DNA from: Zavarzinia marina
GTDB lineage: Bacteria; Pseudomonadota; Alphaproteobacteria; Zavarziniales; Zavarziniaceae
Reading direction: 5' to 3'
DNA length: 64,000 bases
NCBI RefSeq assembly: GCF_021568905.1
Contig: NZ_JAKGSB010000006.1
Location: forward strand, 186,001 to 250,000
Shown here: positions 40,682-46,282 of the stretch, one piece after another
Position numbering within the stretch: position 1 is the stretch's first letter
Layout: every line of letters starts with the position of its first letter
Notes under the pieces: generated by a model
Told to the model about the DNA's origin: nothing
Databases searched by the model: none
What the model saw: only the letters and a program-made list of their open reading frames with translations
Translations under genes and position numbers: made by a program

Positions 40682-42244
40682 CTAGATCCGATCCAGATAC
40701 CAGGCGTGGTCGAGAGGATTGACCTCGGCATCATAGCGTTCGAATTCGGCGCGGCGCATGCGGCCATAGTGCTGGTGGAAGCGTTCGCCGAAATAGCGCG
40801 GCAGGATGACGCCGTCCTCATAGGCTTCGAGCGCGGTCGGCCAATGGCGCGGCAGGCTGGGCGCCACCTGTTCATAGGCATTGCCCTCGATCGGCGGGCC
40901 CGGGTCGATACGCCGGGTGATGCCGGCATGCATGGCCCCCAGGATGGCGGCGACCGCCAGATAGGGATTGGCGTCCGCCCCGCAGACCCGATGCTCGACG
41001 CGGCGCGCCTTGGCATCGCCGCCGGGCACGCGCAGCGGCACCGTACGGTTCTCGAAGCCCCAGCACGGCGCCACCGGCGCGTAGGAGCCGAGCTGGAAGC
41101 GGCGGAACGAATTGACGTTGGGCGCGAATACCGCCATCGATTCAGGCAACGCCTGCATCAGGCCGCCGATGGCATGGCTCAGGCGCTCGTCCGCGCCGTC
41201 GTATCCGGGCGCGAAGGCGTTGCGCCCCTGCTCGTCCACCAGGCTGACATGGACATGGAGCCCGGAACCCGAGGCATTGCCGAAGGGCTTGGCCATGAAG
41301 GTGGCGTCGACGCCGTGCTGGCGCGCGACGGCCCGGACCGCGCGCTTGAAGAGAACCGCATGGTCACAGGCGAGCGCAGCGCCCGCAGTGTGATGGACGT
41401 TGATCTCGAACTGGCCGGGCGCATATTCCGACAAGGCCCCGGTGACCGGAACCTGCTGCGCCGTCATCACCGCCTCGACGGCGTCGAGCACGGCGCGATG
41501 GGCATCCATCTCGTCGAGGGAGAGCACCTGGGTCGACCAGTCGCGCCGCCCGGTCAGGGGCGAGACGGCGGGCATGGGACCGCCGCGCCCGTCGCGCTCG
41601 CGGTCGATCAGATAGAATTCCAGTTCGCAGGCGACGACCGGCGTCAGGCCGAGTTCGGCGAAGCGCCGCTCCACCCCGCACAGCACCTGGCGCGGGTCGG
41701 CGAAGAAGGGCTCGCCCTCTTCCGACAGCAGGGTCAGCAGCATCTGCGCGCCCGCCGGCCCGGCCCAGGGCGCCGGCATGATGCGGCCGTCGACCGGCAC
41801 GGCGATCTGGTCGCGGTCGCCGGAATCCATGCCGAGGCCGGTCTCCTCGACGTTCTCGCCGTGGATGTCGAGGGCGAAGATGGACCCGACGAGTTTCAGG
41901 CCGTTGTCGATGACGTCCAGCGCCTCGGCCCTGGACGCGCGCTTGCCGCGATAGACGCCATTGGTATCGGCGACGAAGAGATCGACGCTGCGGATCTGGG
42001 GATTCCGATCCAGGAAATCGCGGGCGGCGGCGGCGGGATCGCCCCCCTCGCCATCGGCGCGGCGCGGAAAGTCGTCGGGACCGACGGCCCCGCCGGACGC
42101 GTCCGACAGTCTCTTCAGGGTTGCGGCATCGGGGTTCTGGCGGCCGTCGGCGAGGCGGCTCAGGACGGCGACCGGCACGCCGGAACGGCGGGCGAATTCG
42201 GCGAGGTTGAGCGCCTCTCGGGCTAGATAGTCTGCAATTTTCAC
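40682..42244 (-). CDS. Glutamine-synthetase-like enzyme with N-terminal XRE helix-turn-helix
   Basis: 520 residues. Residues 1-55 form an XRE/Cro-type HTH (YLAREALNLAEFARRSGVP, then LSRLADGRQNPDAATLKRL). The remainder is a glutamine synthetase fold: VDLFVADTNGVYRGKR (near 84), ACELEFYLIDRE (near 205), GQFEINVHH (near 278), GSGLHVHVSL (near 325) and NRTVPLRVPGG (near 395). It resembles the gamma-glutamylamine synthetases (PuuA-type) that ligate glutamate to amines such as putrescine. The start GTG 42244 is by position only; a GTG at 42286 is possible. Such HTH-enzyme fusions can self-regulate; that is inferred. Confidence 0.85.
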   Translation of the reverse strand: MKIADYLAREALNLAEFARRSGVPVAVLSRLADGRQNPDAATLKRLSDASGGAVGPDDFPRRADGEGGDPAAAARDFLDRNPQIRSVDLFVADTNGVYRGKRASRAEALDVIDNGLKLVGSIFALDIHGENVEETGLGMDSGDRDQIAVPVDGRIMPAPWAGPAGAQMLLTLLSEEGEPFFADPRQVLCGVERRFAELGLTPVVACELEFYLIDRERDGRGGPMPAVSPLTGRRDWSTQVLSLDEMDAHRAVLDAVEAVMTAQQVPVTGALSEYAPGQFEINVHHTAGAALACDHAVLFKRAVRAVARQHGVDATFMAKPFGNASGSGLHVHVSLVDEQGRNAFAPGYDGADERLSHAIGGLMQALPESMAVFAPNVNSFRRFQLGSYAPVAPCWGFENRTVPLRVPGGDAKARRVEHRVCGADANPYLAVAAILGAMHAGITRRIDPGPPIEGNAYEQVAPSLPRHWPTALEAYEDGVILPRYFGERFHQHYGRMRRAEFERYDAEVNPLDHAWYLDRI

Positions 42245-42301
42245 GATACTCGAAAATAGCCCGCGGCGCCGCAGGCTGGCAAGCACCGAACGCGTCAGGG
42301 G

Positions 42302-42979
42302 CTATCGCTCGTCCGGCAGCAGGGCCAGGGTCTCGGGCGAGGGCGGCTGTGCCAGCATGCCTTCCAGGGTGTCGATCAGGTTCTGATGGGCCATGGCGCC
42401 GGTCCAGTCGGGCGGCCAGAAGGCCGGCGCACGCTCCGCCAGCGCGCGCGACGACAGGAAGGCGAAGGCATGCAGCATGGCGAGACGCAGGCGGTGCGTC
42501 ATGATCAGGGGCGGCAGGTCCGGCAGCAGGCGCCGCAGATGGACGAGGCAGCGCCGCGTCGCCGTGTCGAGATCGATATGGATCGCCTCGAACAGCAGTT
42601 CGCGATGGCTGGCCATGACCTGGTCGAGGAAGACGTTGCCGGTCTCGCCGACCGCGCCCAGCGTCTCGCCCGACGGCATTTCGACCAGGATGGCCAGCAC
42701 GTCCCGAAGCGTGCGGGGCCCGCCGGCCGCCTCCATGGCGTCGACGCGGCGGTTGCGCTCGACCTCGATCACGGCCGCCGTATCGGCGATCAATTCGCCG
42801 ATCAGGGCTTCCTTCGAGCGGAAGTAGTAGTTCACCGAACCGGCGTTCTTCTGCCCCGCCGCACGGGTGATGTCGCGGATCGAGACCGCGTCGATACCCT
42901 GTTCGGCGAACAGGCGCAGCGCCGCCTGCTTGATCCTTTCCCGCGTGTCTTCGCCTCGCGGCGACCGTTCCTCGATCAT
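42302..42979 (-). CDS. TetR family transcriptional regulator (P450-linked)
   Basis: 225 residues. The HTH is IKQAALRLFAEQGIDAVSIRD and GSVNYYFRSKEALIGE (residues 15-60). A C-terminal helical domain follows. It ends the minus-strand gene order P450 then TetR with 47 bases between. ATG 42979 opens a standard-length protein. The likely target is the palindrome at 44348-44364 in the P450 promoter. Ligand unknown; possibly the P450 substrate. Confidence 0.9.
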   Translation of the reverse strand: MIEERSPRGEDTRERIKQAALRLFAEQGIDAVSIRDITRAAGQKNAGSVNYYFRSKEALIGELIADTAAVIEVERNRRVDAMEAAGGPRTLRDVLAILVEMPSGETLGAVGETGNVFLDQVMASHRELLFEAIHIDLDTATRRCLVHLRRLLPDLPPLIMTHRLRLAMLHAFAFLSSRALAERAPAFWPPDWTGAMAHQNLIDTLEGMLAQPPSPETLALLPDER

Positions 42980-43026: not shown

Positions 43027-44301
43027 TCAGGCGGCGGCGAATCGAATGGGCAGGACCTTCGGCCCGTTGACGAAGCTAGCCTGCGACATTTCCGGTTGTC
43101 CCGCCAGTTCGATCGACTTTATCCGCGGTAGCAACTCCTCGAACAGGATGCGCATCTCCATCTTGGCCAGATGCTGGCCGAGGCAGAGATGGGCGCCATA
43201 GCCGAAGGCGAGATGCCTGTTCGGCTTGCGGTCGACGCGGAATTCGAAGGGATCCTCGAACACCGTCTCGTCGCGATTGCCGGAGGCATAGCAGAGCATG
43301 AGCCAGTCGCCCCTGGCGATCTTCCGGCCCGCCAGTTCCGTGTCCTCGGTCGCCGAGCGCATGAAGGTCTTCACCGGCGTGGTCCAGCGGATCGCCTCGT
43401 CGACGAGACCGGGGATCAGGCTGGGATCCGCCTTCACCTTGGCGAATTCGGCCGGCCGCTCGGCCAGCGCCCAGATGGCGCCGGCGGTCGAGGACGAGGT
43501 GGTGTCGTGGCCGGCCGTGGCGACGATGATGTAATAGCTCGTCGCCTCGAAGTCCGAGATCGGCTGGCCGTCGATCAGGCCGGTCGCGATCACCGTCGCC
43601 AGATCCTCGCGCGGGTGGGCGCGGCGATCGTCGGAGATTACACGGAAGTAACTCTCGAAGTCGTCTACCGTCGCCTTCACCATGGTGAAGATCTGCTCCG
43701 GCGTCATCATCGCCATCATCATGCGGGCCTGGTCGGGATCCTGGGCGCCGAACAATTCCTGGGTCAGGCGCAGCATGCGCGGCTCGTCCTCGGCCGGAAC
43801 CCCCAGGATCTCCATCACCACGTGAAGCGGATAGCCGAGCGCCACGTCGGCGACGAAATCGCATTCGCCGTCGCGCGCCAGGAAGCGGTCGACCGCCTCG
43901 CGGGCGATGACGCGCACCCGCTCCTCCAGCCGGCGCAGGTTCTGCGGCATGAACCAGGATTGGGTCAGGGCCCGGTATTTCGGATGGTCCGGCGCATCCA
44001 TGTGGATCAGGGTGCGGATCATATGGGGGCTGCCGCCGGTCACCTTGCGCACGAAGGCGTCCCCCTCGCGGTCGATGATGGTGGGGGAGCGGTCACCACT
44101 GTGGAACAGCGCGTTCTGGCGGCTGACCTCGAGGAGATCGGCATGGCGCGTGACCGCCCAGAAGGGATCGAAACCCTCCGGCTCCGCCACCGCGAGCGGC
44201 ATGTTGGCGCGCAGCCAGGTGTAGGATTCATGCATCTTGCCGGCATCGCCGAAGACGACCGGATCGACCAGGCTGTTGGCGATTTCCTGTGGAATCCTCA
44301 T
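43027..44301 (-). CDS. Cytochrome P450
   Basis: 424-residue soluble bacterial P450. The I-helix oxygen-binding motif is AGHDTTSS (near residue 261), the ExxR motif EAIR (near 307), and the heme-thiolate loop FGYGAHLCLGQHLA (Cys near 371). The overall pattern, including EMRILFEELLPR and FVNGPKVLPIRF at the C-terminus, resembles CYP108/CYP111-like terpenoid hydroxylases; this assignment is tentative. GGGGGAGGAAG precedes ATG 44301. Electrons would come from the divergently encoded reductase and ferredoxin. Confidence 0.94.
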   Translation of the reverse strand: MRIPQEIANSLVDPVVFGDAGKMHESYTWLRANMPLAVAEPEGFDPFWAVTRHADLLEVSRQNALFHSGDRSPTIIDREGDAFVRKVTGGSPHMIRTLIHMDAPDHPKYRALTQSWFMPQNLRRLEERVRVIAREAVDRFLARDGECDFVADVALGYPLHVVMEILGVPAEDEPRMLRLTQELFGAQDPDQARMMMAMMTPEQIFTMVKATVDDFESYFRVISDDRRAHPREDLATVIATGLIDGQPISDFEATSYYIIVATAGHDTTSSSTAGAIWALAERPAEFAKVKADPSLIPGLVDEAIRWTTPVKTFMRSATEDTELAGRKIARGDWLMLCYASGNRDETVFEDPFEFRVDRKPNRHLAFGYGAHLCLGQHLAKMEMRILFEELLPRIKSIELAGQPEMSQASFVNGPKVLPIRFAAA

Positions 44302-44347
44302 GGCTTCCTCCCCCTCTCGGCCGGCTCTCGATTTGGCTTGGCCTTTG

Positions 44348-44364
44348 TTAATACGTTGTTTTAA
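44348..44364. promoter_or_regulatory. Imperfect 17-bp palindrome, TetR operator candidate
   Basis: TTAATACGTTGTTTTAA has symmetric matches at TTAA.AC...GT.TTAA. It covers the -10 box and the expected transcription start of the P450 gene, so a bound repressor would block it. Confidence 0.5.
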
Positions 44365-44389
44365 TATATCACGGAATGCGCCGGGGCAA
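44361..44389 (-). promoter_or_regulatory. Predicted sigma-70 promoter of the P450 gene
   Basis: On the minus strand, TTGCCC (44384-44389) and TATTAA (44361-44366) are 17 bases apart. Each matches consensus at 4/6. Transcription would begin near 44354, giving a leader of about 50 bases. Confidence 0.5.
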
Positions 44390-44696
44390 GCCGTCGCGAC
44401 GAGAATTCCGCCATTGCGGCGGCAGAAGGGAACGGCGCCTTTCCGGCAGGGCGCCGATGCGCGACGACCGGGCAAATCGGCCGGCTTGCGGGTTCGAGGC
44501 GGAATTGGCTATTCCCGCCACAAGCCATTCGCGCATATATATCGCCACCATCGCCGCCATCGGATCATCGAAGGCGCGGCGGAAATCCGGATGCGCAAGG
44601 TTGCCGCGTATTCGTTCGGGTAGATGAGCCCGCGACGGAAAGAATTCGAATCCCCGTGATGAATCGTCCGTCGCCGTAGGGGAGGAGTATTGCAGG

Positions 44697-46282
<1,586 letters not shown>

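What the first reader, a model, noticed from the sequence alone, without database searches (positions are those of the whole stretch)
40682..42244. Helix-turn-helix fused to a glutamine-synthetase-like enzyme
An XRE-type DNA-binding domain of about 55 residues precedes a full GS fold with the catalytic blocks present. A DNA-binding amine-glutamate ligase would be an enzyme that senses its own substrate and regulates a target. I do not know of a characterised member.
Basis: partly seen in the sequence, partly recalled or inferred. Interest (0 to 1): 0.55.

Follow-up and report, generated by a model that had tools for sequence, protein, structure and literature searches.

The report
DNA-binding glutamine-synthetase-like enzyme
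In the bacterium Zavarzinia and some distant relatives, an enzyme that probably attaches amines to glutamate carries a small DNA-binding head, and comparison with related genes suggests that the head lets such enzymes switch off their own genes.

Summary
Window 40682-42244 (-) encodes one 520-residue protein: a Cro/C1-type helix-turn-helix (residues 1-58), a linker, and a PuuA-like glutamine-synthetase-family ligase with its catalytic residues intact. No ATG/GTG/TTG lies in frame between HTH and enzyme, and a promoter-like site sits just before GTG 42244. The HTH is encoded in all 7 genomes of the order (one frameshifted) and in 5 genomes of four other alphaproteobacterial families (one frameshifted). 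Six of these twelve keep the gene next to folC, trxA-addA or both.

Beyond the finding, the four unbroken genes outside Zavarziniaceae carry a dyad TTACC-N5-GGTAA in their own promoters; 1 of 53 HTH-less relatives does. The same HTH module is also fused to RibBA, SucA, MeaB, aspartate/ornithine carbamoyltransferase and TorD-like proteins, and several of those genes carry the same or a similar N5-spaced dyad. I infer a portable self-repression module, with substrate probably relieving repression.

Against this: the window's own copy has the most diverged HTH and no recognisable operator. DNA binding, catalysis and ligand were not tested. A structural or decaying HTH remains possible for this copy.

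The parts
40682..42244 (-). HTH-GS fusion gene, 520 aa, GTG start
   Evidence: Zavarzinia orthologues start at the same GTG
42071..42244 (-). Cro/C1 HTH domain, residues 1-58
   Evidence: Pfam, AlphaFold2, Foldseek
42149..42172 (-). recognition helix, residues 25-32 (V25, R30); E25 in members outside Zavarziniaceae
   Evidence: helix 25-32 in the model; alignment, G040 in 35; that these positions contact DNA is recalled from 434 repressor
41999..42070 (-). variable linker, residues 59-82, no ATG/GTG/TTG in frame
   Evidence: mean aa identity 0.53 against 0.75 (HTH) and 0.80 (GS) in six genes; start codons
40685..41998 (-). GS-family ligase domain, PuuA-like
   Evidence: Pfam 331.9 bits; 40% identity to PuuA; metal, ATP and glutamate residues invariant in 9 members (roles recalled)
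42253..42282 (-). promoter-like site TTGCCA-18-TATTTT, 8 nt before GTG, so probably a leaderless mRNA
   Evidence: the -35-like CTTGCC is present in all six Zavarzinia genes aligned
42245..42259 (-). place that aligns with a weak dyad in G001 (TTACC-CTTGG-GGCAC); degenerate here (CTATTTTCGAGTATC)
   Evidence: overlaps the -10 element
42302..42979 (-). TetR-family regulator upstream, beside the fusion in five of six Zavarzinia genomes
   Evidence: Pfam TetR_N; synteny; not part of the fusion

Best explanation
It is a self-regulating enzyme. The GS part is a PuuA-type gamma-glutamyl-amine ligase that keeps its catalytic residues. The N-terminal Cro/C1 head pairs within the oligomer and binds an N5-spaced dyad in the gene's own promoter, repressing it; amine substrate or a catalytic intermediate probably alters head spacing and releases the DNA. 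Shown: fusion, conservation, purifying selection on the HTH among other Zavarzinia, conserved residues, shared promoter dyads in relatives and in sister fusions. Inferred: binding, repression, ligand, oligomer geometry. In the window's own species the head and the operator place have both drifted, so control there may be altered or being lost.
For: Same start and HTH across the family. Among Zavarzinia G001, G002, G003 and G005, HTH dN is 0.024-0.121 with dS 0.20-0.73, close to the GS part's dN of 0.009-0.126 (G004 left out). The dyad TTACC-N5-GGTAA with at most 2 mismatches lies upstream of 4 of 4 unbroken members outside Zavarziniaceae (G007, G370, G387, G315), one copy in each at -49 to -57; 0 of 2000 Markov shuffles have it in all four, but the consensus came from the same sequences. 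Motif discovery over five sequences: best 12-mer 7 summed mismatches, against a mean of 12.9 and minimum of 11 in 30 single-base shuffles. It is in 1 of 53 HTH-less GS relatives, starts chosen by rule. In G315 two copies flank and overlap TTGACA-17-TTATCT (read by eye, 57, 61). Sister fusions: PyrB-like TTACCAAATCGGTAA; MeaB TAACC-N5-GGTTA in three genomes. WWRCC-N5-GGYWW is in 10 of 32 module genes at N5 and at most 2 at any other spacing from 0 to 12; 0.007 expected per region. Perfect 6-bp N5 dyads: 7 of 19 against a mean of 0.81 and maximum of 3 in 200 shuffles; in genes fetched later, 3 of 5. Position 25 is E in the four genes with the dyad and V in Zavarziniaceae.
Against: The window copy has no dyad, its HTH diverges faster than its GS part (dN 0.31-0.35 against 0.12-0.15 within the genus) and it misses the HTH_3 cut-off. 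Of seven Zavarziniaceae genes only G001 (2 mismatches) and G004 (degenerate pattern) hint at a site. G040 has E25 but no dyad under the 2-mismatch rule. The HTH is absent from two f35 relatives and out of frame in two genomes, so it is dispensable. The degenerate pattern was written after some of its sites had been seen. Only 20 of the 48 non-GS module places had promoters examined, long frames fetched on purpose. N3 and N7 dyads are enriched too, partly by nesting, and N1, N3 and N7 also beat all 100 shuffles; the three standalone genes tested there do not (15 of 100 at N5). In the four non-Zavarziniaceae GS promoters dyad symmetry alone is not significant at N5 (10 of 100 shuffles) and is stronger at N6 and N12. 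In L190 the perfect dyads are at N6 and N8. No binding or enzyme assay.
Confidence: 0.6

Rival explanations
1. The HTH is a structural or oligomerisation domain that does not touch DNA, as in other enzymes that carry an XRE-like domain.
For: Foldseek lists methylphosphonate synthase, PhpD and cyanase among the matches; that their HTH-like domains do not act on DNA is recalled. The window copy has no operator.
Against: Shared promoter dyads in GS genes of three other families (f2, f82, f124) and in MeaB and PyrB-like fusions; 1 of 53 in HTH-less GS genes.
Confidence: 0.2
2. The fusion is relict: self-control was ancestral and is being lost in Zavarziniaceae and f35, so in this window the HTH does little.
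For: HTH diverging faster than GS in the window species, degenerate operator place, out-of-frame HTH in G004 and G040 and HTH-less G265 and G168.
Against: Purifying selection on the HTH among the other Zavarzinia; F17, G22, R30, G34 and P38 still present in the window copy.
Confidence: 0.3
3. The GS part is a dead sensor, as in BzdR, and the protein is purely a regulator.
For: Precedent: BzdR, where loss of shikimate kinase activity accompanied its evolution as a regulator (PMC3602430, abstract).
Against: E207, E209, E273, E280, H330, R382, R400, R405, E417 and R419 invariant in 9 members, aligned with PuuA and GlnA (role assignments recalled).
Confidence: 0.07
4. The HTH controls a distant regulon rather than its own gene.
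For: Of 8 other exact CCRAAACGGTAA sites in the four genomes with the dyad, 3 lie between predicted ORFs (L173, L174, L176). In G387 neither exact site is the own promoter.
Against: Exact sites are few (2-5 per genome, 11 in all; the backward control pattern gives 5), 3 of the 11 are own promoters and 5 lie inside predicted ORFs.
Confidence: 0.08

Closest known systems
PuuA + PuuR of E. coli (separate proteins)
   Same: PuuA is the nearest characterised enzyme compared here (40% identity); PuuR represses the puu operons (PMC9397018, passages)
   Different: Here an HTH is fused to the ligase itself; PuuR's remaining part, recalled to be a cupin, is absent
Trifunctional PutA
   Different: Ribbon-helix-helix and proline oxidation, not Cro/C1 HTH and a ligase
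BzdR
   Same: N-terminal DNA-binding domain joined by a linker to an enzyme-like domain (PMC3602430, abstract)
   Different: Shikimate-kinase-like domain that lost its activity; here the catalytic residues are kept
NadR and BirA of enterobacteria (recalled)
   Same: HTH fused to a working enzyme, autoregulatory
   Different: Other enzyme families; BirA has a winged helix
Cyanase, methylphosphonate synthase and PhpD (found by Foldseek)
   Same: Enzymes with an XRE-like HTH fold
   Different: Recalled not to bind DNA; other catalytic domains

Membership tests
Glutamine synthetase superfamily (PF00120) | Gln-synt_C domain over the cut-off with metal, ATP and glutamate residues | tested here: met
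   331.9 bits, cut-off 24 (12); residues invariant in 9 members and aligned with PuuA and GlnA
Gamma-glutamylputrescine synthetase equivalog (NF045547) | score over 650 bits | tested here: not met
   217.3 bits, though the best NCBIfam hit: may work like it, not filed as a member
Type I/III glutamine synthetase equivalogs | TIGR00653 over 429 bits or TIGR03105 over 470 bits | tested here: not met
   194.8 and 204.9 bits
Cro/C1 (XRE) HTH, HTH_3 | score over the Pfam cut-off of 23 bits | tested here: inconclusive
   22.2 bits for the window copy (12), so the cut-off itself is missed; E down to 3.6e-07 in relatives; predicted fold and Foldseek agree
Autoregulatory (trigger) enzyme with fused DNA-binding domain | DNA-binding domain covalently part of the enzyme | tested here: met
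Autoregulatory (trigger) enzyme with fused DNA-binding domain | operator in its own promoter | tested here: inconclusive
   dyad in 4 of 4 unbroken members outside Zavarziniaceae; not recognisable in the window copy
Autoregulatory (trigger) enzyme with fused DNA-binding domain | enzymatic activity and ligand-controlled DNA binding | not testable with these tools
   needs purified protein

The most novel reading that the evidence does not exclude
Alphaproteobacteria use one portable Cro/C1 module as a genetic self-control head: it has been fused repeatedly to the N terminus of unrelated metabolic proteins (GS-like ligase, RibBA, SucA, MeaB, aspartate/ornithine carbamoyltransferase, TorD-like), and each protein represses its own gene through an N5-spaced dyad that its head recognises.
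Probability: 0.5. Interest if true: 0.82.

Novelty: new variant of a known kind. Interest (0 to 1): 0.66.

Why it matters
Enzymes with a fused DNA-binding domain are usually described case by case. A module found on several unrelated enzymes of one bacterial class, with promoter dyads that can be read from sequence, would make directly testable how enzymes acquire self-regulation and how a recognition helix and its operator change together. It would also give a second role to genes that may be annotated only as enzymes or only as regulators.

Tried and rejected
A start after the HTH was rejected. Chance or annotation artefact was rejected by conservation. Mobile origin: no relative in viral contigs (24, close relatives only); 122 plasmid records match P0001, and the 30 listed all begin at residue 77 or 78, so lack the HTH there (92 not listed). 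HTH as one clade: the 12 HTH rows alone are rejected (p-AU 3.9e-75), but with the two HTH-less f35 rows one clade is not rejected (p-AU 0.33). Fusion outside Alphaproteobacteria: in a sample of 398 Proteobacteria only the window's own genome matched the HTH part at E 1e-17. A regulon from exact motif sites: of 8 sites other than own promoters, 5 were inside predicted ORFs; the HTH-less genome G168 also has one site, just before a gene (L177, 62). N5 dyads in Zavarzinia GS promoters: 4.60 against a null of 4.67, no enrichment. In the four non-Zavarziniaceae GS promoters dyad symmetry alone was not significant at N5 (10 of 100 shuffles as high) but was at N6 and N12 (0 of 100); the claim there rests on shared sequence. 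The full-length AlphaFold2 model was poor in the GS part (mean pLDDT 42.8, four sequences), so nothing is taken from that part. The equivalent of GlnA Asp50 could not be placed by alignment.

Literature: searches found 0 papers. The listings of 41 (15 of 540), (19 of 19; 9 of 9; 5 of 5; 10 of 204; 2 of 2) showed none whose title or abstract start describes an HTH-GS or HTH-RibBA fusion. This covers open-licence PMC papers only.

Full report
What is there. The gene at 40682-42244 on the minus strand encodes 520 residues. Pfam sees Gln-synt_C at 182-516 with 331.9 bits and HTH_3 at 9-49 with 22.2 bits, slightly under its cut-off of 23. In all 9 members scanned HTH_3 and HTH_31 are found at E 0.01 or better. 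The predicted structure of residues 1-63 is a compact Cro/C1 domain (mean pLDDT 88.4). Its matches among solved structures include DdrO, SinR, HipB, YdaS and P22 c2 repressor, though no Foldseek E-value is below 0.001. No ATG/GTG/TTG stands in frame from codon 24 to about codon 100. A promoter-like TTGCCA-18-TATTTT ends 8 bases before GTG 42244, so the transcript probably starts at or next to the start codon.

What the enzyme part is. It is 40% identical to E. coli PuuA over 444 residues and 31% to the genome's own GlnA over a shorter stretch. Its best NCBIfam hit is gamma-glutamylputrescine synthetase, far below the cut-off (217 of 650 bits). Nineteen relatives from genomes of other classes of the phylum are 43-50% identical over 447-473 positions. 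The residues for metals, ATP and glutamate are conserved in all nine members aligned (roles recalled from GlnA). Tyr388 stands where GlnA has the flap glutamate, as in PuuA. In PauA7 and the GlnA3 model this glutamate is likewise not conserved (PMC5403932, passages). I therefore read it as an amine-glutamate ligase of unknown amine.

How old and how wide. One search names three close relatives as Zavarzinia. The order holds 7 genomes. The HTH is in frame in 6; in G004 the HTH lies in another frame than the GS. Outside the family it is in G007 (family code f2), in G370 and G387 (2 of 9 f82 genomes searched at E 1e-130), in G315 (1 of 3 f124 genomes) and, out of frame near the end of the HTH, in G040 (f35), while G265 and G168 of f35 have the gene without HTH. 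In all, at least 9 of 385 sampled Alphaproteobacteria carry it, two of them out of frame. In a sample of 398 Proteobacteria only the window's own genome did at E 1e-17.

Locus (gene names read by eye, comparison by BLAST). G007, G387 and G040, and HTH-less G265, have folC on one side and trxA-addA on the other. G315 shows only the folC side. G370, G006 and HTH-less G168 show only the trxA-addA side. G004 lies about 5 kb from trpB-accD-folC. Of the 47 HTH-less rows in the 59-row tree only G265 and G168 show trxA, folC or addA within the roughly 1.5 kb flanks held. The 14 rows of HTH genes plus these two are not rejected as one clade (p-AU 0.33); the 12 HTH rows alone are. The simplest reading is one old fusion with later losses. 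In five of six Zavarzinia genomes, the window's included, the gene now lies beside a TetR gene.

Operator. Upstream of G007, G370, G387 and G315 I found the dyad TTACC-N5-GGTAA with 1-2 mismatches; one copy in each lies at -49 to -57. None of 2000 Markov shuffles had it in all four; the consensus was taken from the same sequences, so the discovery control (7 summed mismatches against at least 11 in 30 shuffles) is the fairer one. It is in 1 of 53 HTH-less GS genes, with start codons chosen by rule. In G315 two copies flank and overlap a TTGACA-17-TTATCT promoter, read by eye. The window gene has none. G001 has a 2-mismatch version at -16, and the aligned place is degenerate in the other Zavarzinia. 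Residue 25, at the start of the recognition helix, is E in the genes outside Zavarziniaceae and V in Zavarziniaceae (G040). In the window species the HTH has changed faster than the GS part (dN 0.31-0.35 against 0.12-0.15 within the genus), while among G001, G002, G003 and G005 it is under purifying selection.

The module elsewhere. A 60-column profile of this HTH finds 57 places in 46 of 385 alphaproteobacterial genomes at E 1e-7. Several are N-terminal to other proteins. Pfam confirms, on one example each, DHBP synthase plus GTP cyclohydrolase II (RibBA, in the window's own genome), 2-oxoglutarate dehydrogenase N-terminus, MeaB, aspartate/ornithine carbamoyltransferase, a nitrate-reductase-delta/TorD-like protein and, with a weak match to the module, a RuBisCO-large-like protein. 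I examined promoters of 12 GS genes and of 20 of the 48 other places; those in long frames were fetched on purpose, and the RuBisCO-like three were left out. Their promoters gave a cross-check: the PyrB-like gene has the perfect TTACC-N5-GGTAA and three MeaB genes have TAACC-N5-GGTTA. The form WWRCC-N5-GGYWW is in 10 of 32 module genes and in at most 2 at any other spacing tried (0-12); 0.007 per region is expected from held DNA. I wrote this form after seeing some of the sites. Independently of sequence, perfect 6-base dyads at N5 occur in 7 of 19 non-GS genes (one near-copy dropped) against a mean of 0.81 and maximum of 3 in 200 shuffles; N3 and N7 give 5 each, partly the same sites. Of six new loci fetched later, one (L193) was dropped because its match begins inside the model with no start codon; 3 of the other 5 have perfect N5 dyads, one 5 of 6 pairs (L190, where N6 and N8 are perfect) and one 4 of 6. 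RibBA genes of Zavarzinia use other arms (TTTAAG-N5-CTTAAA in G000), and their recognition helix has Q at the R30 position.

Mechanism and limits. I infer that the fused head binds the gene's own promoter as a pair and represses it, and that substrate relieves this. Binding, repression, ligand and activity are not shown. For the window's own copy the case is weaker than for its relatives, and a structural or decaying head is a live alternative. Known analogues are PutA (start of abstract in listing), BzdR (abstract), NadR and BirA (recalled). I found no paper on this fusion in the searches named under Tried and rejected.

Noticed in passing
G000:C11:55633-55812 (L157), also L158, L159, L160, L161, L186, L189, L190, L191: RibB/RibA-type protein (frames of 440-459 aa) with the same kind of N-terminal HTH in the window's own genome and in several alphaproteobacterial families; N5-spaced dyads upstream of most. 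Pfam run on L157 only; the others read by eye.
   Followed up: partly
L130, L131, L170 (genomes G014, G147, G245): MeaB GTPase with the HTH head and a TTAACC-N5-GGTTAA dyad within 20 bases of the start codon. Pfam run on L170 only.
   Followed up: partly
L162 (G195): Aspartate/ornithine carbamoyltransferase (PyrB by reading) with the HTH head; TTACC-N5-GGTAA just after a TTGACA.
   Followed up: partly
L132/L169 (G326): 2-oxoglutarate dehydrogenase E1 with an in-frame HTH head; TTGCC-N5-GGCAA at -24.
   Followed up: partly
L096 (G230): TorD/NarJ-like protein with the HTH head; no N5 dyad of the common form upstream.
   Followed up: partly
L166, L167, L168 (G278, G371, G294): RuBisCO-large-like proteins with an N-terminal XRE HTH (Pfam on L166 only); promoters not examined.
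   Followed up: no
L133, L163, L164 (G124, G025, G038): HTH head with an unidentified C-terminal stretch (Pfam on L164 only, no partner found); perfect N5 dyads GTACCC/GGGTAC (L133) and GTATCC/GGATAC (L163) before the start.
   Followed up: partly
L013/L119 (G004) and L018/L113 (G040): HTH and GS in different frames: real break, assembly error or frameshifting not decided.
   Followed up: partly
window 43027-46282: Cytochrome P450, ferredoxin reductase-type flavoprotein and 2Fe-2S ferredoxin genes (Pfam), perhaps a P450 electron-transfer set.
   Followed up: no
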